64,000 bases of DNA from Conexibacter sp. SYSU D00693 (GTDB taxonomy: Bacteria > Actinomycetota > Thermoleophilia > Solirubrobacterales > Solirubrobacteraceae). Under the pieces are notes generated by a model that was given only the letters and a program-made list of their open reading frames with translations, ran no database searches and was not told the DNA's origin. Shown here piece by piece: positions 16,132-34,723 of this stretch. Location of the stretch: positions 3,658,001 through 3,722,000 of the forward strand of contig NZ_CP070950.1 in NCBI RefSeq assembly GCF_017084525.1. Direction: 5' to 3'. Each line of letters begins with the position of its first letter. Position 1 is the first letter of the stretch. A program made the position numbers and the translations under genes.

Positions 16132-16213
16132 GGCGAGGTACCGAAGCGGTCAACCGGGCCTGACTGTAAATCAGGTGGCTTTGCCTTCGCAGGTTCGAAT
16201 CCTGCCCTCGCCA
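16132..16213 (+). tRNA. tRNA-Tyr (anticodon GTA)
   Basis: The acceptor stem GGCGAGG (16132-16138) pairs with CCTCGCC (16206-16212). The anticodon arm is CCTGA-CTGTAAA-TCAGG with GTA. A long class II variable arm is present, and the T arm is GCAGG-TTCGAAT-CCTGC. The discriminator is A16213 and CCA is not fully encoded. The large variable arm plus GTA identifies a bacterial tyrosine tRNA. Confidence 0.96.
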
Positions 16214-28377: not shown

Positions 28378-29946
28378 CTACCGCAGGCGACGCACGGCGC
28401 GCGCGATGTGGCCGTATCCGTCGCGCCCGCTCGCGCTCACCCGCCCCGCGCGACCAGCCGACCGCAGCACGAAGCACCGCCGCGTCTCGCCGACGGAAGC
28501 GATCACCGAGCGCCCGCCCGCGACGATCCGCGCCCGCGGCACCGTCCCGCCGAGAGCACGCGCGCACATCCGCAAGCCACCACCCCGCACCCGCCGCACC
28601 CCGCTCAACCGCAGCAGCGCGTGGGGCTGCAGCGACGCCTGGCGCGTGACGAAGCTGCCCTCCCAGCCGGCCCGGAACTGCTGCACCCGGTGCGGGCGGC
28701 CGAGGTCGAAGACCAGCCGCAGCCGGCCCTCGTCGTTGGGCGCGAGGGTCTCGGGGCGCCCCGAACCCCCGAAGTCGACGTCGACCGCCCGCAGCCCGCG
28801 GAACAGCGGCGGTGTGACGACGACCGTCCGCCCGGACCCGCGCACGAGCACCGACGACGCGTTCGCCCGCAGCCGCATCCACTCCAGCGCGCGATCGGGG
28901 TCGACGCCGACCCGCCACCCGAACACCTCGAAGCGCGGCTCGATCGAGCGGAAGTCGACGGTCTCGGGGTCAGGAGGCGGCGAGGCCAGTGCTCGCGTCA
29001 GCCCGCTCAGCGCGTCCACCGTCTCGCGCCGGAAGTTCGGCAGGGAGTGGCAGCCCGAGGCGTAGTCCTGCCACTCGTGCTCCACCCCGAGCTCGCGGAA
29101 GCGCTCGTGGAGGTTGACGCTCGCCATGTGCACGCCGGTCTCGACGGCGCACGAGAGGAGGTCGGCGCCGAGCGCCTGCTCGCCGAGGGCGGCGTTGAGC
29201 GTCCCGTTGCCCGTGCGGATCTGCAGGGCGATGCCGCGCAGGTTCTCCGCGAGGTCCCAGGGGTTGTGGCCGCGCCAGCGGATCTCCTCGAGCGTCCGAG
29301 GGCCGTAGATCGCATCGGGCAGCCCGCCGTCCAGCGACGAGCTCGCCGACAGGACGCTGCCGTTGATCGGCAGGTTGCTGTCGACCGCCCCGCTCAACGA
29401 CGCCGCCGCGACGAACAGGTCGGGATGGCGGGCGGCGAACATCATCGCCCCGTAGCCGCCCATCGAGATCCCGAAGATCGCCCGCGCGCGCCGCTCGGGC
29501 ACCGTCCGGTAGCGCGCGTCGATCAGCGGGATGAGCTGGGAGATGACGAACGTCTCGTACTTCGGCGGCCCGCCGCGGCCGGCGTTGAACCAGTCGCTCC
29601 AGTAGCCGGCGTTGGCGTCGGGCGCGACGACGATCGAGGGGTAGTCCTGCGTCAGGCGCTCGCCGTCGAGCAGCCGGCGGAAGGCGGTGTAGCGGTTCGA
29701 GGTGCCGGCGGTGACGTAGGTGACCGGCCACCGGCGCTGAGGCTCGTCGCCGTAGCCGACCGGGAACATGACCTCGACCTTGGTCGGCGCGACGAACGCG
29801 TCGGTCCTGATCGTCAGCTCGATGGTGCGGTCGCTGACGCGCCGCTCGGCGACGACGACGGCGTCCGCCCAGGCGCTGCTCGTCGCGCCGGACGCCCACG
29901 CCCACGCGACGATCGCCACCCCGACAGCCATCCGTAGCCGCGACAC
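28378..29946 (-). CDS. secreted esterase D/antigen-85-like hydrolase
   Basis: This 522-residue exported protein has a signal peptide to about residue 28 (AWAWASGATSSAWA). The alpha/beta-hydrolase domain of the esterase family PF00756 has nucleophile S161 in FGISMGGYGAM, an acidic residue in the EWQDY region, and His in SGCHSLPNF. The C-terminal third is a beta-rich domain (VLVRGSGRTVVVTPPLF...). Family members include mycolyltransferases, siderophore esterases and feruloyl esterases; substrate not evident. The GTG start at 29946 supplies the basic n-region; ATG 29931 is an alternative. Confidence 0.82.
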   Translation of the reverse strand: MSRLRMAVGVAIVAWAWASGATSSAWADAVVVAERRVSDRTIELTIRTDAFVAPTKVEVMFPVGYGDEPQRRWPVTYVTAGTSNRYTAFRRLLDGERLTQDYPSIVVAPDANAGYWSDWFNAGRGGPPKYETFVISQLIPLIDARYRTVPERRARAIFGISMGGYGAMMFAARHPDLFVAAASLSGAVDSNLPINGSVLSASSSLDGGLPDAIYGPRTLEEIRWRGHNPWDLAENLRGIALQIRTGNGTLNAALGEQALGADLLSCAVETGVHMASVNLHERFRELGVEHEWQDYASGCHSLPNFRRETVDALSGLTRALASPPPDPETVDFRSIEPRFEVFGWRVGVDPDRALEWMRLRANASSVLVRGSGRTVVVTPPLFRGLRAVDVDFGGSGRPETLAPNDEGRLRLVFDLGRPHRVQQFRAGWEGSFVTRQASLQPHALLRLSGVRRVRGGGLRMCARALGGTVPRARIVAGGRSVIASVGETRRCFVLRSAGRAGRVSASGRDGYGHIARAVRRLR

Positions 29947-30059
29947 GCGCGAACGACCCTATCCGTGCGGCGACGCGGCACCAACCCGGCACTGTCGTGC
30001 GGGGCCTGCGAGACGAACCTGCGCGCCACGCAGCACGACACGACCAAGGGGGAGCAGGG

Positions 30060-30962
30060 ATGACCACGCAGGACATCGCGGTCGACAGCAAGGTGACGGT
30101 GCACCCGGTGAGCCTCGCGCTCGGGGCGCGGCTCGAGGGCGTCGACCTCACGCAGCCCATCGACGAGCCCGACTGGGCCGTCGTGCGCCAGGCGTTCGCC
30201 GACCACAGCCTCGTCATCGTCCGCGGGCAGGACATCACCGTCGACGACCAGCGTCGCTGGGCGCAGGGCTTCAGCGAGCTCGACCTGCCGGAGGGCGTGA
30301 GCCCGCTGGAGATGCGCGAGCACACGTCGATGTTCACGCTCGAGGGCCACCCGGACACGCTGGCGCTGCACAACAACGCCGACCGCCGCCCGGGCCTCGA
30401 CCACTGGCACACCGACAACATCGGCTTCGTCGACCCGCCGAGCGCGACGGTGCTCTACGCCAAGGTCACGCCGGCGCTGGGCGGCGACACGCTCTTCGCC
30501 TCGATGCACCTCGCCTTCGAGGCGCTGTCCAGGCCGATGCAGGTCTTCCTGGAGTCGCTCGACGCGGTGCACGACATGCGCCAGGCCTTCCGCAACCCGA
30601 TGCTCGAGGAGGCGCTGCGCAAGAAGGGCATCGACCCCGACGAGCACTTCGCCCGCCACGAGCCGGCGGTCCACCCGCTCGTGCGCACGCACCCGGTCAC
30701 CGGGCGCAAGGCGCTGTTCCTCTCGGCGCCGCACACGACCGGCATCGTCGGCCTGTCCGACAAGGAGGCCCGGACCCTCCTGCAGTTCCTCTTCCACCAC
30801 TGCGAGGACCCGGCCTTCCAGTACCGCCACGTCTGGCAGGAGGGCGACGTCCTGGTGTGGGACAACCGCGCGCTGCAGCACCTGCCCGTCGCCGACTACC
30901 ACCCGCACGAGCGCCTCATGTTCCGCATGAGCGTCTCGGGCGACGTGGTGCGCCGGGGCTGA
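30060..30962 (+). CDS. TauD/TfdA-family Fe(II)/2-oxoglutarate dioxygenase
   Basis: This 300-residue dioxygenase has the iron ligands H117 and D119 in DHWHTDNIGF. The distal histidine is H274 in NRALQHLPVADYH, and the 2-oxoglutarate arginine is near R285/R289 in HERLMFRMSV. Relatives hydroxylate or desaturate taurine, aryloxyacids, amino acids or acyl chains. The ATG follows GGGGGAGCAGGG, one of the strongest ribosome sites in the window. It is the first gene of a tight operon: the GNAT gene starts 1 nt after its stop and the synthetase-like gene 5 nt after that. Confidence 0.93.
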   Translation: MTTQDIAVDSKVTVHPVSLALGARLEGVDLTQPIDEPDWAVVRQAFADHSLVIVRGQDITVDDQRRWAQGFSELDLPEGVSPLEMREHTSMFTLEGHPDTLALHNNADRRPGLDHWHTDNIGFVDPPSATVLYAKVTPALGGDTLFASMHLAFEALSRPMQVFLESLDAVHDMRQAFRNPMLEEALRKKGIDPDEHFARHEPAVHPLVRTHPVTGRKALFLSAPHTTGIVGLSDKEARTLLQFLFHHCEDPAFQYRHVWQEGDVLVWDNRALQHLPVADYHPHERLMFRMSVSGDVVRRG

Positions 30963-30963
30963 C

Positions 30964-31773
30964 ATGCCGCCCGTGGACGGGGCCGTCGATCCGGGTCACG
31001 CGCTGGCCCGGACGTGGTTCGCGCCGCGCCATCCCAACCGCTGCTGGGCGGAGGCGGTCGTGAGCGACCGCCTCCCCGGCCGGGTGTGGACGCTGCCGCG
31101 CGCGGGCGACCCGATGACCGTGGTGGTGGAGGCCGGCGAGCGGTTCTGCTTCGTCGGAGGCCGCGTGGACGACGACGTCCTCGCCCACCTGACCGACGCC
31201 CTGCGCGAGCGCTCGCCGGCGGCGCAGGTCGTCCTGCCGCCGTCCTGGCACGACGTCCCGTTCACCGTGCCCGCCGGCCGCCGGACGCAAGGCCGGGCGC
31301 ACTTCCGCGCGCCCGCGCACCGCCTGCGCGAGGCGCTCACCCAGGAGCTCGAGGACGACCGCCGCGCGCACCTGGCCCGCCAGGACGTCTGCGTCCGGCG
31401 CCTCGAGGCCGACGACTTCGACGACCCGCTCCTGCACGACACCATGCGCGCGATCTACGGCGACGCCGAGCACTTCGGCGCCGAGCCGGAGATGGGGTTC
31501 TGCGCCGTGGACACTGACGGCCTGCTCGTCTCGTGGCTGCACCCGATCTGCGGCGACACGACCGCCGAGGTCGGAGCCGGCACGCGGGCCGACGCGCGCG
31601 GCCGCGGCATCTCGGCGGCGCTCAACGTCCTGACGGTCCGCGCGCTCGCGCTCCAGGGCTTCGACGTCACCGCGTCGTGGGTCCTCGAGCACCCGGCGAG
31701 CCCGGGCCTCGCCGGCCACGTCGCCCTCGAGCACGAGTTCGACTACACCGTCCTCGTGCCCGTCGAGGGCTAG
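30964..31773 (+). CDS. GNAT-family acyl/aminoacyl transferase with N-terminal extension
   Basis: This 269-residue protein has about 140 N-terminal residues of an unassigned alpha/beta domain, then a GNAT core (VCVRRLEADDFDDP, MGFCAVDTDGLLVSWLHPICG). The CoA-loop-like segment reads GTRADARGRGISAALNVLTVR (R/Q-x-x-G-x-G/A form RGRGIS). The two-domain shape fits the PF12746-like acetyltransferases. The acceptor is unknown. It sits between a dioxygenase and a synthetase-like gene, so acylation or aminoacyl transfer onto the pathway product is plausible. Confidence 0.75.
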   Translation: MPPVDGAVDPGHALARTWFAPRHPNRCWAEAVVSDRLPGRVWTLPRAGDPMTVVVEAGERFCFVGGRVDDDVLAHLTDALRERSPAAQVVLPPSWHDVPFTVPAGRRTQGRAHFRAPAHRLREALTQELEDDRRAHLARQDVCVRRLEADDFDDPLLHDTMRAIYGDAEHFGAEPEMGFCAVDTDGLLVSWLHPICGDTTAEVGAGTRADARGRGISAALNVLTVRALALQGFDVTASWVLEHPASPGLAGHVALEHEFDYTVLVPVEG

Positions 31774-31778
31774 GCGCC

Positions 31779-32639
31779 GTGCACGACGTCGACCCGCTCA
31801 TCGCCCTCGCCCACGAGGGCGACGGCGGCCCCTGCGACACGGTCTACCTCGGCTTCGGCCTGGCCGCCCACGGCGGCCTGACCACCGGGGAGCTGCCGCT
31901 CGACGCCCTGGCGATGCTCGTCGTCGCCGAGCGCCAGCGCCGCCTGCGCGGCGCGCAGCGGATCCTCCACCTCGTCGCCGACCGCCACGCGCTGGTCAAC
32001 GCCTTCGCGACCCGCCGGGAGGTCGCCCGCGCGGCGGACGCGCTCGTCGACCAGCTCGAGGCGCTCGCCCCGGCGCTCGGCCTGCAGGCCTACGACGTCG
32101 TCCGCGCGTCGCAGCTCACCGCGCCGGAGTACCGCCGCCTCGTCGCCGACGCCGGCCAGCGCGCGCCCGACCCGTACGGCGCCCGCCAGGCCGCCGACGT
32201 CGAGTGGATGCGCCGCGCCCACGGCGCCGCCGTGAAGGTCGGCTGGACGCTGAGCGCCCGCCCGGACGGGGTCGCGCGGCGCGACGAGGTCGCCTTCGAC
32301 GCGCTGCACCGCCAGCTCTTCGGGCCCGGCCTCGCGACGGTCTACACCGGGCCGGGTCGCAGCCTCGACCCGGATCGCCCGCGCTGCAGCCCCTACGTCC
32401 TGCTCGCCGGCCAGCGCCGCCTGACGCTCGCGTCCGGCGCCGGGTCGGTGGCCGAGCACTGCGCGAGCTCGCGCATGCGGCGCCACCTGCGCCCGATCGC
32501 CGAGCGCGTCCTGCAGCAGCTCGGCGTCGTGGCGGTGGCGGACACGCCGCTGCAGGACCGCCTGGAGCTGCTGCTCGCGCTGCTGCGCGGCGACGCCCGT
32601 CCGGACGCGCCGCTCGCGCAGCCCGCGGTCGCCGCCTAG
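31779..32639 (+). CDS. class I aminoacyl-tRNA-synthetase-like (HUP fold, TyrRS/TrpRS-type) protein
   Basis: This 286-residue protein is not matched to a named family with certainty. It shows a degenerate class I signature region (FGLAAHGGLTTGELPL at 26-41). A VADRHALVNAF stretch (66-76) is strikingly like the IADWHA helix of tyrosyl-tRNA synthetases. EYRR and KVGWTLS (153-159) follow, then a DEVAFD...YTGPG...SPYVLL segment like the substrate-binding half of TyrRS. There is no KMSKS loop or anticodon-binding domain. It may adenylate an amino acid or use aminoacyl-tRNA in small-molecule synthesis. GTG start; 5 nt after the GNAT gene. Confidence 0.5.
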   Translation: MHDVDPLIALAHEGDGGPCDTVYLGFGLAAHGGLTTGELPLDALAMLVVAERQRRLRGAQRILHLVADRHALVNAFATRREVARAADALVDQLEALAPALGLQAYDVVRASQLTAPEYRRLVADAGQRAPDPYGARQAADVEWMRRAHGAAVKVGWTLSARPDGVARRDEVAFDALHRQLFGPGLATVYTGPGRSLDPDRPRCSPYVLLAGQRRLTLASGAGSVAEHCASSRMRRHLRPIAERVLQQLGVVAVADTPLQDRLELLLALLRGDARPDAPLAQPAVAA

Positions 32640-33874
32640 CGCGGCGTCCACGCCACCCGCAGGTGGCGCATCTGGCGCAGGACCAGGCTCTGCCAGACGC
32701 CGTGGTCCTGGCCGTCGACGAGGCGCAGCTCGGGCAGGCGGTCCAGCAGCGCGTTCGTGGCGATCTCGAACTGGAGCTTGGCCAGCGGCGCGCCGAGGCA
32801 GAAGTGCGTGCCGCGCCCGAAGGTGAGGTTCGCGCGGGCCGCGCCCTCGCGCTCGGGGTCGAGCTGCGCCGCGTGCGGGCAGGCCGCCTCGTCGCGGTTG
32901 GCCGACGCGAACAGGAGCATGAGCCGCGACCCCGCGGGCAGCTCGACGCCGCCGACGACGACGTCCTGCACCGCCGTGCGGACCATGCCGTGGGAGACAG
33001 AGTCCCAGCGGCTGGCCTCCTCGAGGAACGGCAGCAGCCGCGAGCGGTCCTCGCGCAGGCGCTCCCACCAGCCCTGCTCGAGCGCGACCTTCCAGGTGTT
33101 GGCCAGCAGCGCGGTCGTCGACTCGTGGCCGGCCGAGAGCATCGAGGCGCCGATCGCGAGGACGAGCTCGTGCTCGGTGAGCCGCTCGCCCTCGTGCTCG
33201 GCGTGGACGAGGTAGCTCGTGAGGTCCTCGCGCGGGCCGCGCCGGCGGTCCTCGATGAGCTCGATGCAGTAGCGCTGGAAGGCGAGCACGCCCTCGGCCA
33301 TCGCGGGCTGGTCCTCGGCCGGGATCGGCTCGAAGGCCAGGCCCTGCCAGTCGGCGCTCCAGCGCTTGATCTGCCAGACGTCCTCCTCGGGGACGCCCAT
33401 GACGCCGAGGATCACGTGGACGGGCAGGGGGTAGGCGAGCTGCTCCACGAGGTCGGCGTGGTCGTGGCCGTCGAAGGCGTCGACGAGCTCGTGCGTCACG
33501 CGCGCGATGAGCGGCGCCATCGCCGCGATGCGCGCGCGGGTGAAGCCGCGGTTCATGAGCCGCCGCAGGCGCGTGTGCGCCGGCGGGTCCATGCCCAGCA
33601 GGACGTGGCGCGTGTCGTAGCCGCGGGCGAGGATCGCGCGCGCCTCGTCGGTCAGGTGCGCGCCGCTGCTGAGCATGTCGCGGTTCGAGAAGCGCCGGGC
33701 GTCGCGCAGCACCGCGCAGACGTCCTCGTAGCGGCTGACGAGCCACATGCCGAGCACCGGGTTGAACGTCACCGGCTCCTGCGCGCGGAGGCCGTCGAAG
33801 AACGGGTGCGGGTCGGTGACGTGCGCGCCGGCGAAGGGGTGGTAGGCGGCGCCGAGGGACGTGGTGGTCGTCAT
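32636..33874 (-). CDS. cytochrome P450
   Basis: This 412-residue soluble bacterial P450 has the I-helix motif AGHESTT in SMLSAGHESTTALLAN, ExxR in LEEASRWDS, and the haem loop FGRGTHFCLGAPLAK with C359 as thiolate ligand. Bacterial P450s of this size hydroxylate natural products, terpenes or fatty acids and need ferredoxin partners, none of which is adjacent. The ATG at 33874 gives the usual N-terminus (YHPFAGAHVTDPHPFF). The stop shares CTAG with the synthetase-like gene, so the P450 faces the TauD-GNAT-synthetase operon and may belong to the same pathway. Confidence 0.93.
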   Translation of the reverse strand: MTTTTSLGAAYHPFAGAHVTDPHPFFDGLRAQEPVTFNPVLGMWLVSRYEDVCAVLRDARRFSNRDMLSSGAHLTDEARAILARGYDTRHVLLGMDPPAHTRLRRLMNRGFTRARIAAMAPLIARVTHELVDAFDGHDHADLVEQLAYPLPVHVILGVMGVPEEDVWQIKRWSADWQGLAFEPIPAEDQPAMAEGVLAFQRYCIELIEDRRRGPREDLTSYLVHAEHEGERLTEHELVLAIGASMLSAGHESTTALLANTWKVALEQGWWERLREDRSRLLPFLEEASRWDSVSHGMVRTAVQDVVVGGVELPAGSRLMLLFASANRDEAACPHAAQLDPEREGAARANLTFGRGTHFCLGAPLAKLQFEIATNALLDRLPELRLVDGQDHGVWQSLVLRQMRHLRVAWTPR

Positions 33875-34009: not shown

Positions 34010-34723
34010 CTAGCCCGTCGGGTCAGACGTCCAGGGCGTGACCGGCCGCCGCTGGCGCTCGCCGTCGATCGCGAGGTCGACGTGCTCGTCGAAGAAGCAG
34101 ACCAGGCCGGCGACCTTCGGGCACTCGGGGATCGGCTCGTCGTAGACCCAGGCGAGGTCGCGCCCGCCGTGGCGCAGGAACCGCGCGGTGCCCTTGAACG
34201 GGCAGCGCGAGACGGTCGTCGACGGCTCGAGCAGGTCGAGCCGGACGTCCTGCGGTGGCAGGTACCACCGCGTGGGCAGCGTCGTCTCGAACAGCGCGTG
34301 CGGGCGGCGGGAGTCGGCCAGGACCTCGCCCTCGTGGGCGACGACGACGTGGCGCTCACTGGGCACGACGTCGACGCGGTGTCGCGGGTCGCGGGCGTGG
34401 ACGACGACCTCCTCGGCCTCCTCGAACCACCGCACCGTCCCGTCCCACGTGAACGTCCAGTGCCCGTCGAGCTCGGCGGGCGCGCCGTCGGCGACGCTCA
34501 GGCGCCGGGCGGCGCCGGGCGGCAGCGCGGCGACCGCCTCGAGGTCGACGTCCTCGGGTGCGAAGCAGTAGGTCGGCAGGACGCCGGGGCCGTAGCGGAC
34601 GTGCAGCAGGGCGCTGCGGCTGTCGGCCACCCACCGGTCGCCGGCGCGCACGCGCACCCACCGGGGCGTGGGCTCGACGCGCTCGGGCGGGACCTCGATG
34701 TCGAAGGGCGGGGCGGCCGCCAT
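34010..34723 (-). CDS. tandem DUF427 protein
   Basis: This 237-residue protein contains two DUF427 modules. The first (WVRVRAGDRWVADSRSALLHVRYGPGV) ends near residue 115. The second (RHVVVAHEGEVLADSRRPHALFETTLPTRWYLP) ends with CPFKGTARFLR and the conserved DLAWVYDEP. DUF427 proteins are small beta-barrels of unknown biochemical role, common in actinobacteria and fungi. It lies 32 nt downstream of the esterase gene on the same strand and is probably cotranscribed. The 135 nt between its stop and the P450 start hold nothing recognisable. Confidence 0.85.
   Translation of the reverse strand: MAAAPPFDIEVPPERVEPTPRWVRVRAGDRWVADSRSALLHVRYGPGVLPTYCFAPEDVDLEAVAALPPGAARRLSVADGAPAELDGHWTFTWDGTVRWFEEAEEVVVHARDPRHRVDVVPSERHVVVAHEGEVLADSRRPHALFETTLPTRWYLPPQDVRLDLLEPSTTVSRCPFKGTARFLRHGGRDLAWVYDEPIPECPKVAGLVCFFDEHVDLAIDGERQRRPVTPWTSDPTG

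What the first reader, a model, noticed from the sequence alone, without database searches (positions are those of the whole stretch)
30060..33874. TauD dioxygenase - GNAT - aminoacyl-tRNA-synthetase-like operon facing a P450: possible undescribed tRNA- or adenylate-dependent pathway
The three plus-strand genes are packed with 1- and 5-nt gaps behind a very strong ribosome site, and the P450 ends on the same CTAG as the third gene. The 31779 protein has a VADRHALVNAF helix, KVGWTLS and DEVAFD...SPYVLL blocks that look like a TyrRS/TrpRS catalytic core. It has no KMSKS loop and no anticodon-binding domain. Synthetase paralogues plus acyl/aminoacyl transferases and oxygenases are known to make small amino-acid-derived compounds (e.g. 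valanimycin-type tRNA-dependent pathways). This exact combination is not one I recognise. Gene calls are seen in sequence; the pathway is inference.
Basis: partly seen in the sequence, partly recalled or inferred. Interest (0 to 1): 0.75.

Follow-up and report, generated by a model that had tools for sequence, protein, structure and literature searches.

The report
TyrRS-derived non-synthetase in dioxygenase–acetyltransferase operon
A soil-type actinobacterium carries a small three-gene operon whose third gene makes a protein with the predicted shape of tyrosyl-tRNA synthetase, one of the enzymes that read the genetic code, but without the two histidines that such enzymes use to activate amino acids, so it probably does a different and still undescribed job in making or modifying a small tyrosine-derived molecule.

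Summary
The gene calls hold: TauD-type dioxygenase, GNAT and a 286-aa protein ('family X') abut on the + strand, and a convergent P450 shares the CTAG stop. Family X matches no curated family above cut-off. Its AlphaFold model (pLDDT 79) matches archaeal TyrRS at Z 19.4 over about 229 residues. Alignment to M. jannaschii TyrRS keeps the tyrosine-pocket residues (Y32, Y151, Q155, D158) in the actinobacterial members. Both HIGH histidines and the KMSKS lysines are gone. New residues (K153, W156, D169, E170, an Arg-rich loop) are invariant in 19 homologues. TauD-GNAT-X is conserved in Patulibacter medicamentivorans. In another Solirubrobacteraceae MAG, X overlaps a second, divergent TyrRS gene. 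In Myxococcales MAGs X stands alone, under purifying selection. The P450 is not part of the conserved gene block: its 73% orthologue lies beside bioA in Patulibacter. However, P450, GNAT and X occur in the same two of about 249 sampled class genomes. Most likely X is a TyrRS-derived, non-adenylating aromatic-amino-acid enzyme, possibly an aminoacyl-tRNA-dependent transferase, in a small specialised-metabolite operon. The fold and the motif loss are shown by prediction and alignment; the chemistry is inferred.

The parts
30060..30962 (+). Fe(II)/2-oxoglutarate dioxygenase of the TauD/TfdA family (gene 1 of the operon)
   Evidence: PF02668 208.6 bits; alignment to E. coli TauD keeps HxD (H117, D119), H274, R285 and R289 but not the taurine-pocket H70, Y73 and N95; 75% identical in P. 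medicamentivorans in the same order
30964..31773 (+). tandem-GNAT acyltransferase (gene 2)
   Evidence: PF12746 19.5 bits, below its 26-bit cut-off; medium-confidence model, best match PamZ Z 15.2 over 253 residues; RGRGxS loop in both orthologues; 46-48% identical orthologue in P. medicamentivorans
31779..32639 (+). family X: TyrRS-derived protein without HIGH histidines or KMSKS lysines (gene 3, GTG start)
   Evidence: AlphaFold2 pLDDT 78.8, pTM 0.81; archaeal TyrRS Z 19.4, rmsd 3.0, 229 residues; 19-member alignment; residue mapping
32636..33874 (-). cytochrome P450, convergent, sharing CTAG with gene 3; not syntenic with the module elsewhere
   Evidence: PF00067 60.1 bits, FGRGTHFCLG heme motif; 73% orthologue beside bioA in P. 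medicamentivorans
30045..30053 (+). ribosome-binding-site-like AAGGGGGAG upstream of gene 1
   Evidence: sequence

Best explanation
Genes 30060-32639 form a three-gene operon for making or modifying a small aromatic-amino-acid-derived metabolite. Its third product descends from tyrosyl-tRNA synthetase and keeps the tyrosine-binding pocket, but has lost the HIGH and KMSKS elements that activate amino acids with ATP. It is therefore most likely not a synthetase. The best-supported working model is an enzyme that receives a tyrosine-like aminoacyl group already activated, as Tyr-tRNA(Tyr), and passes it to a small acceptor using its own conserved residues (K153, W156, D169, E170, D174, R194, R200, R202). 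The TauD-type enzyme hydroxylates or otherwise oxidises the product, and the tandem GNAT acylates it, for tailoring or for self-protection as PamZ does. Shown: operon structure, its conservation in Patulibacter, loss of the motifs, strong purifying selection in Myxococcales, an extra TyrRS gene next to X in one relative. Predicted: the TyrRS fold. Inferred: tyrosine as substrate, tRNA as donor, order of steps, product. The P450 is probably a separate gene.
For: Fold: archaeal TyrRS are the top matches by Foldseek and VIA-align (Z 19.4, 229 of 286 residues). An independent weak sequence hit goes to the archaeal-type TyrRS model PRK08560 (E 0.17). MAFFT with M. jannaschii TyrRS (sequence verified against 1j1u) pairs Y23-Y32, D68-D68, H70-H70, N74-N74, Y133-Y151, Q137-Q155, D140-D158 and E170-Q173 in five of six runs. 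Both HIGH histidines are replaced and KMSSS becomes RLTxxS. Invariant new polar residues in 19 homologues from two phyla. dN/dS 0.04-0.12 among Myxococcales pairs. Same three-gene order in P. medicamentivorans. In L006, X overlaps a second TyrRS only about 30% identical to that genome's housekeeping copy, followed by a GNAT and an additional prephenate dehydratase. Precedent: SbzA, an IleRS copy that moves Ile from Ile-tRNA onto altemicidin beside GNATs (PMC6331615; PMC12945691).
Against: No direct evidence for tRNA binding; the C-terminal anticodon-binding part is shortened. SbzA, the closest precedent, keeps its HIGH and KMSKS-like motifs. The myxobacterial members replace two of the four pocket residues (Y23 to W, D140 to Q) and have neither TauD nor GNAT nearby, so substrate and partners cannot be general. 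L006 has no TauD nearby, and its GNAT is unrelated by BLAST. L006 is a MAG, so the extra TyrRS and dehydratase copies might partly reflect binning. Profile-profile alignment of X with TyrRS is weak, so descent rests mainly on structure.
Confidence: 0.38

Rival explanations
1. Family X is still an ATP-dependent amino-acid-activating ligase that needs no tRNA, as MshC or the hydrazine-forming MetRS-like domains are, using replacement residues (Arg loop, K153) in place of HIGH and KMSKS.
For: TyrRS fold and amino-acid pocket kept; R214 sits where the first KMSKS lysine would be, and R194, R200 and R202 are invariant and could bind phosphates.
Against: Both HIGH histidines are lost in every member, and an invariant Asp (D42) sits at the start of that helix. 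Class I enzymes that adenylate normally keep HIGH (established knowledge).
Confidence: 0.2
2. Family X is a non-adenylating enzyme that does new chemistry on a free aromatic amino acid, the TyrRS pocket having been recruited only for binding.
For: Pocket retained with a new set of invariant polar residues; stand-alone occurrence in Myxococcales without partner genes.
Against: No co-substrate or cofactor motif recognised; no precedent found in the papers searched.
Confidence: 0.22
3. Family X is a catalytically dead TyrRS paralogue: a sensor, regulator, or decoy for a TyrRS inhibitor.
For: Loss of both catalytic signatures; dead synthetase paralogues such as HisZ exist (established knowledge); adjacent second TyrRS in L006.
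Against: New invariant charged residues (K153, D169, E170, D174, three Arg) across two phyla are more than ligand binding needs; tight co-operonic position with an oxygenase and an acyltransferase.
Confidence: 0.15
4. All four genes, P450 included, form one biosynthetic unit.
For: P450, GNAT and X are found in the same two of about 249 sampled class genomes, and the P450 abuts X here.
Against: In P. medicamentivorans the 73% orthologue is on another contig beside bioA, and the TauD-GNAT-X block there has no P450. That genome carries 15 P450 matches, so coincidence is easier. The P450 also matches BioI structures (3ejb, 171 bits), though not best. L006 has X without that P450.
Confidence: 0.2

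Closest known systems
Archaeal/eukaryotic-type tyrosyl-tRNA synthetase (class Ic; M. jannaschii TyrRS, 1j1u)
   Same: Predicted fold over nearly the whole length (Z 18.6 to 1j1u itself, 19.4 to its variants); equivalents of Y32, D68, H70, Y151, Q155 and D158 in the actinobacterial members
   Different: Both HIGH histidines and the KMSKS lysines absent; Q173 replaced by Glu; about 20 residues of the middle insertion and much of the C-terminal part missing; new invariant K153, W156 and an Arg-rich loop
SbzA, IleRS-like aminoacyl-tRNA-dependent transferase of SB-203208 biosynthesis
   Same: Class I synthetase relative in a specialised-metabolite setting with GNAT acyltransferases
   Different: IleRS (class Ia), full-length with HYGH and AMSKA motifs kept and trace charging activity; X is TyrRS-derived, short and without these motifs
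Cyclodipeptide synthases (AlbC, Rv2275)
   Same: TyrRS/TrpRS-like Rossmann domain, similar length, no HIGH/KMSKS
   Different: No match to PF16715; no catalytic Ser in the first loop (GFGLAA instead of GxSPxN); Q137 where CDPS have Glu; invariant residues differ
TauD/TfdA dioxygenases
   Same: Full domain with Fe and 2-oxoglutarate ligands
   Different: Taurine-pocket residues H70, Y73 and N95 not kept
PamZ (paenilamicin self-resistance tandem GNAT) and aminoacyl-tRNA-dependent GNATs Sba18/Sbb17
   Same: Tandem-GNAT architecture in the predicted model (PamZ Z 15.2; Sba18 Z 10.4)
   Different: About 9-16% identity; no sequence match in the PDB; acyl donor unknown

Membership tests
Tyrosyl-tRNA synthetase (class Ic) | HUP/Rossmann TyrRS fold | tested here: met
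   AlphaFold2 model versus PDB: Z 19.4, rmsd 3.0, 229 residues; a prediction, not a solved structure
Tyrosyl-tRNA synthetase (class Ic) | HIGH motif (both His) | tested here: not met
   TTGEL, GEGRL, VTGDL or SCG-L in place of HLGHY
Tyrosyl-tRNA synthetase (class Ic) | KMSKS/KMSSS loop with Lys | tested here: not met
   RRLTLAS, PRLTFSS, RRITVTS; DRLLLGT in Myxococcales
Tyrosyl-tRNA synthetase (class Ic) | Tyr-pocket residues Y32, Y151, Q155, D158 (Mj numbering) | tested here: met
   Y23, Y133, Q137, D140 in the three actinobacterial lineages (5 of 6 MAFFT runs); in Myxococcales W and Q replace the first and last
Tyrosyl-tRNA synthetase (class Ic) | Anticodon-binding C-terminal domain | tested here: inconclusive
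   Model aligns to residue 305 of Mj TyrRS but with fewer residues
Tyrosyl-tRNA synthetase (class Ic) | Curated family score (PRK08560 cut-off 220 bits) | tested here: not met
   10.9 bits, E 0.17
Tyrosyl-tRNA synthetase (class Ic) | tRNA charging activity | not testable with these tools
   needs enzyme assay
Cyclodipeptide synthase | Pfam CDPS PF16715 | tested here: not met
   no hit at E<=1; no CDPS match in the own genome
Cyclodipeptide synthase | Nucleophilic Ser in GxSPxN after strand 1, and Tyr-x3-Glu | tested here: not met
   GFGLAA and Y133-x3-Q137 in X versus GVSPGNSYF in CDPS loci
SbzA-type aaRS-like aminoacyl transferase | Full-length IleRS-like protein with HYGH and AMSKA motifs | tested here: not met
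   X is 286 aa, TyrRS-like, motifs absent (PMC12945691)
SbzA-type aaRS-like aminoacyl transferase | aa-tRNA-dependent transfer to a small acceptor | not testable with these tools
   needs enzyme assay
TauD/TfdA Fe/2OG dioxygenase | PF02668 above cut-off and HxD...H...R ligands | tested here: met
   208.6 bits; H117, D119, H274, R285
Taurine dioxygenase (equivalog) | PRK09553 cut-off 313 bits and taurine pocket | tested here: not met
   229.3 bits; H70, Y73 and N95 not kept
PF12746 GNAT / tandem GNAT | Curated PF12746 score (26 bits) | tested here: not met
   19.5 bits over the full length
PF12746 GNAT / tandem GNAT | Tandem-GNAT fold | tested here: inconclusive
   model pLDDT 63; PamZ Z 15.2, rmsd 4.7, 253 residues
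Aminoacyl-tRNA-dependent GNAT (FemX/Sba18 type) | aa-tRNA as donor | not testable with these tools
   Sba18 Z 10.4 at rmsd 7.4 only; an RGRGxS CoA-type loop is present
Cytochrome P450 | PF00067 and FxxGxxxCxG | tested here: met
   60.1 bits; FGRGTHFCLG
BioI-type P450 | Acyl-ACP cleavage in biotin synthesis | tested here: inconclusive
   orthologue beside bioA in one genome; 3ejb 171 bits but not the best match

The most novel reading that the evidence does not exclude
Family X is a new class of TyrRS-derived biosynthetic enzyme, shared by Solirubrobacterales and Myxococcales, that uses the tyrosine pocket without ATP activation. It either transfers tyrosine from Tyr-tRNA to a small molecule by a mechanism different from CDPS and SbzA, or does new chemistry on free aromatic amino acids. 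In Solirubrobacterales it works with a dedicated TauD oxygenase and a GNAT.
Probability: 0.45. Interest if true: 0.8.

Novelty: new variant of a known kind. Interest (0 to 1): 0.6.

Why it matters
Synthetase relatives that left translation are few and each has opened a class of natural products (CDPS, SbzA, AcmF). A January 2026 review of aminoacyl-tRNA-dependent enzymes names an IleRS-like and an AlaRS-like enzyme, CDPSs, GNAT-fold transferases and LanB-like ligases; the parts read here name no TyrRS-derived enzyme without HIGH/KMSKS other than the CDPSs, which share that fold (PMC12945691). If the reading is right, a TyrRS pocket has been reused with the activation machinery removed, in two distant phyla. 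That gives a testable case of how a translation enzyme is turned to small-molecule chemistry, plus a handle (TauD-GNAT-X) for finding the product.

Tried and rejected
Sequence search of the PDB with X alone or with the 19-member profile found nothing useful. Local profile-profile alignment to Mj TyrRS found only the VADRHALVN block; a first CDPS run used wrongly picked CDPS reading frames and is void, and global mode failed for all references, giving no usable alignments, so residue mapping relied on MAFFT plus the predicted structure. Plasmid and viral collections: no relatives. A weak second hit in the own genome (E 2e-4, 77 residues) and in G093 were not followed; the reading frames at L004 look like unrelated GC-rich sequence. 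In the first CDPS/TyrRS extraction some loci were read on the wrong strand; TyrRS sequences were corrected. The dN/dS value for window versus Patulibacter (0.61) is not interpretable because third positions are nearly all G/C. No CDPS chain appears among the 50 rows shown of the fold search; absence there proves nothing. Isonitrile synthase was considered from memory because TauD and P450 partners are typical of it; X did not match any Pfam model of that kind at E<=1, so it was dropped. Defence-system models: no hits. No tRNA gene lies in the operon; a tRNA-Tyr at 16132-16213 is 14 kb away and probably housekeeping. Searching the class of a myxobacterial relative was not possible with the tool.
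Full report
Observation. The window holds TauD (30060-30962), GNAT (30964-31773) and a 286-aa protein, here family X (31779-32639, GTG start), in tandem on the + strand with gaps of 1 and 5 nt, and a convergent P450 (32636-33874, minus strand) that shares CTAG as stop. A codon-usage gene finder run on the window keeps all four genes. The upstream neighbour (28378-29919, esterase) is on the other strand, so the operon is just these three genes.

Family assignments. TauD passes PF02668 (208.6 bits). Alignment to E. coli TauD keeps the iron ligands and the 2-oxoglutarate arginine but not the taurine-pocket residues H70, Y73 and N95, and the taurine equivalog cut-off is not reached. The GNAT reaches PF12746 only below cut-off. 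Its model is of medium quality (pLDDT 63) and matches tandem GNATs, best the paenilamicin self-resistance enzyme PamZ (Z 15.2, 253 residues, rmsd 4.7; PamZ function: PMC9054821, abstract); aminoacyl-tRNA-dependent GNATs Sba18 and Sbb17 are in the list at lower Z. An RGRGxS loop, close to the CoA-binding signature, is conserved in both orthologues, which leans towards an acyl-CoA donor. The P450 passes PF00067 and has the FGRGTHFCLG heme motif.

Family X. No Pfam or NCBIfam model reaches cut-off. The best NCBIfam hit is archaeal-type TyrRS at E 0.17. Relatives were found by searching genomes: in 299 Thermoleophilia-class genomes only the window's own and one other, in 396 phylum genomes only the own, and, in a scan of 84,980 species limited to exact peptide patterns, 18 loci: two Solirubrobacterales and sixteen Myxococcales/Deltaproteobacteria-type or unnamed MAG contigs. 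The true spread may be wider, since that scan needs an exact short peptide. The 19-member alignment has many invariant polar residues: D42, D68, Y133, Q137, E142, K153, W156, D169, E170, D174, Y189, R194, R200, R202, R214.

Structure. AlphaFold2 on the 19-member alignment gave pLDDT 78.8 and pTM 0.81. All top Foldseek matches are TyrRS. VIA-align gives Z 19.4 for M. jannaschii TyrRS variants over 229-230 residues at rmsd about 3 and Z 17 for yeast TrpRS. The M. jannaschii sequence was verified against PDB 1j1u. Five of six MAFFT runs pair Y23 with Y32, Y133 with Y151, Q137 with Q155, D140 with D158, D68 with D68, H70 with H70 and E170 with Q173. From established knowledge of TyrRS, Y32 and D158 contact the phenol OH, and Y151, Q155 and Q173 the amino group. 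In the actinobacterial members the pocket is thus kept except Q173 to Glu; in Myxococcales Y23 and D140 are Trp and Gln. The HIGH histidines are replaced in every member and the KMSSS stretch reads RLTxxS or is lost. K153, W156 and the loop G193-R194...R200-P201-R202 have no counterpart in TyrRS.

Context. In Patulibacter medicamentivorans (L005, the same contig as L003/L039) TauD, GNAT and X lie in the same order with a 10-nt gap and an 11-nt overlap; identities are 75, 46-48 and 58%. No P450 is adjacent there. In L006, a Solirubrobacteraceae MAG, X overlaps by 56 nt a complete TyrRS gene that is only about 30% identical to the other TyrRS genes, while the genome's housekeeping TyrRS is 58% identical to that of the window genome. 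A GNAT unrelated to the window's by BLAST and a prephenate dehydratase follow, and that genome has two further dehydratases. This MAG may be imperfect, but an extra TyrRS next to X points to tyrosine or Tyr-tRNA. In Myxococcales X sits between an M23 peptidase and a convergent sulfotransferase, followed by a TauE-type permease and a YkuD protein, without TauD or GNAT, and evolves under purifying selection (dN/dS 0.04-0.12 in eight pairs).

The P450. Its 73% orthologue in P. medicamentivorans lies 168 nt downstream of bioA and converges on bioD-bioF-bioB. The window genome has its bio genes about 300 kb away, and congeners have bioB-F-D without this P450. A BioI-like role is therefore a fair rival reading. 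Yet among about 249 genomes of the class, the P450, the GNAT and X were each found only in the window genome and in P. medicamentivorans. If the occurrences were independent and uniform the coincidence would be about 1 in 248, but P. medicamentivorans is rich in P450s, so this is only suggestive.

Mechanism. Shown: operon, conservation, motif loss, selection. Predicted: TyrRS fold with a kept aromatic-amino-acid pocket. Inferred: X does not adenylate; it most likely takes an already activated aminoacyl group (Tyr-tRNA) or acts on free tyrosine-like substrate, followed or preceded by TauD oxidation and GNAT acylation. The nearest precedent is SbzA, an IleRS copy that moves Ile from Ile-tRNA onto altemicidin (PMC6331615), but SbzA keeps HYGH and AMSKA (PMC12945691). 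CDPSs share the fold and motif loss but not the catalytic Ser or Tyr-x3-Glu, and PF16715 does not match. X is therefore filed neither as a synthetase nor as a CDPS: it is a TyrRS-derived family of its own, working possibly like SbzA or a CDPS. The papers searched gave no description of such a family; the library is limited to open-access papers.

Noticed in passing
L038:10446-16398 (P. medicamentivorans contig): P450 73% identical to the window's sits between bioA and convergent bioD-bioF-bioB: a candidate BioI-like enzyme for pimelate supply; congeners have bioBFD without it.
   Followed up: partly
L006:7974-11761: Family X overlaps a second, divergent TyrRS gene, followed by a GNAT and a third prephenate dehydratase copy: possible producer of a TyrRS-directed or Tyr-derived compound with its own resistant TyrRS.
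   Followed up: partly
L006:12165-16572: MurD and MurL-like genes and a C5 cytosine methylase flank that cluster.
   Followed up: no
L013:6363-11851 and the same order in other Myxococcales loci: Conserved block M23 peptidase, family X, convergent sulfotransferase, TauE-type permease, YkuD L,D-transpeptidase in uncultured Myxococcales.
   Followed up: partly
window 16132-16213: tRNA-Tyr (GTA) gene 14 kb upstream of the operon, probably the housekeeping copy.
   Followed up: no
window 34010-34723: DUF427-domain protein (95.7 bits) next to the P450, same strand.
   Followed up: no
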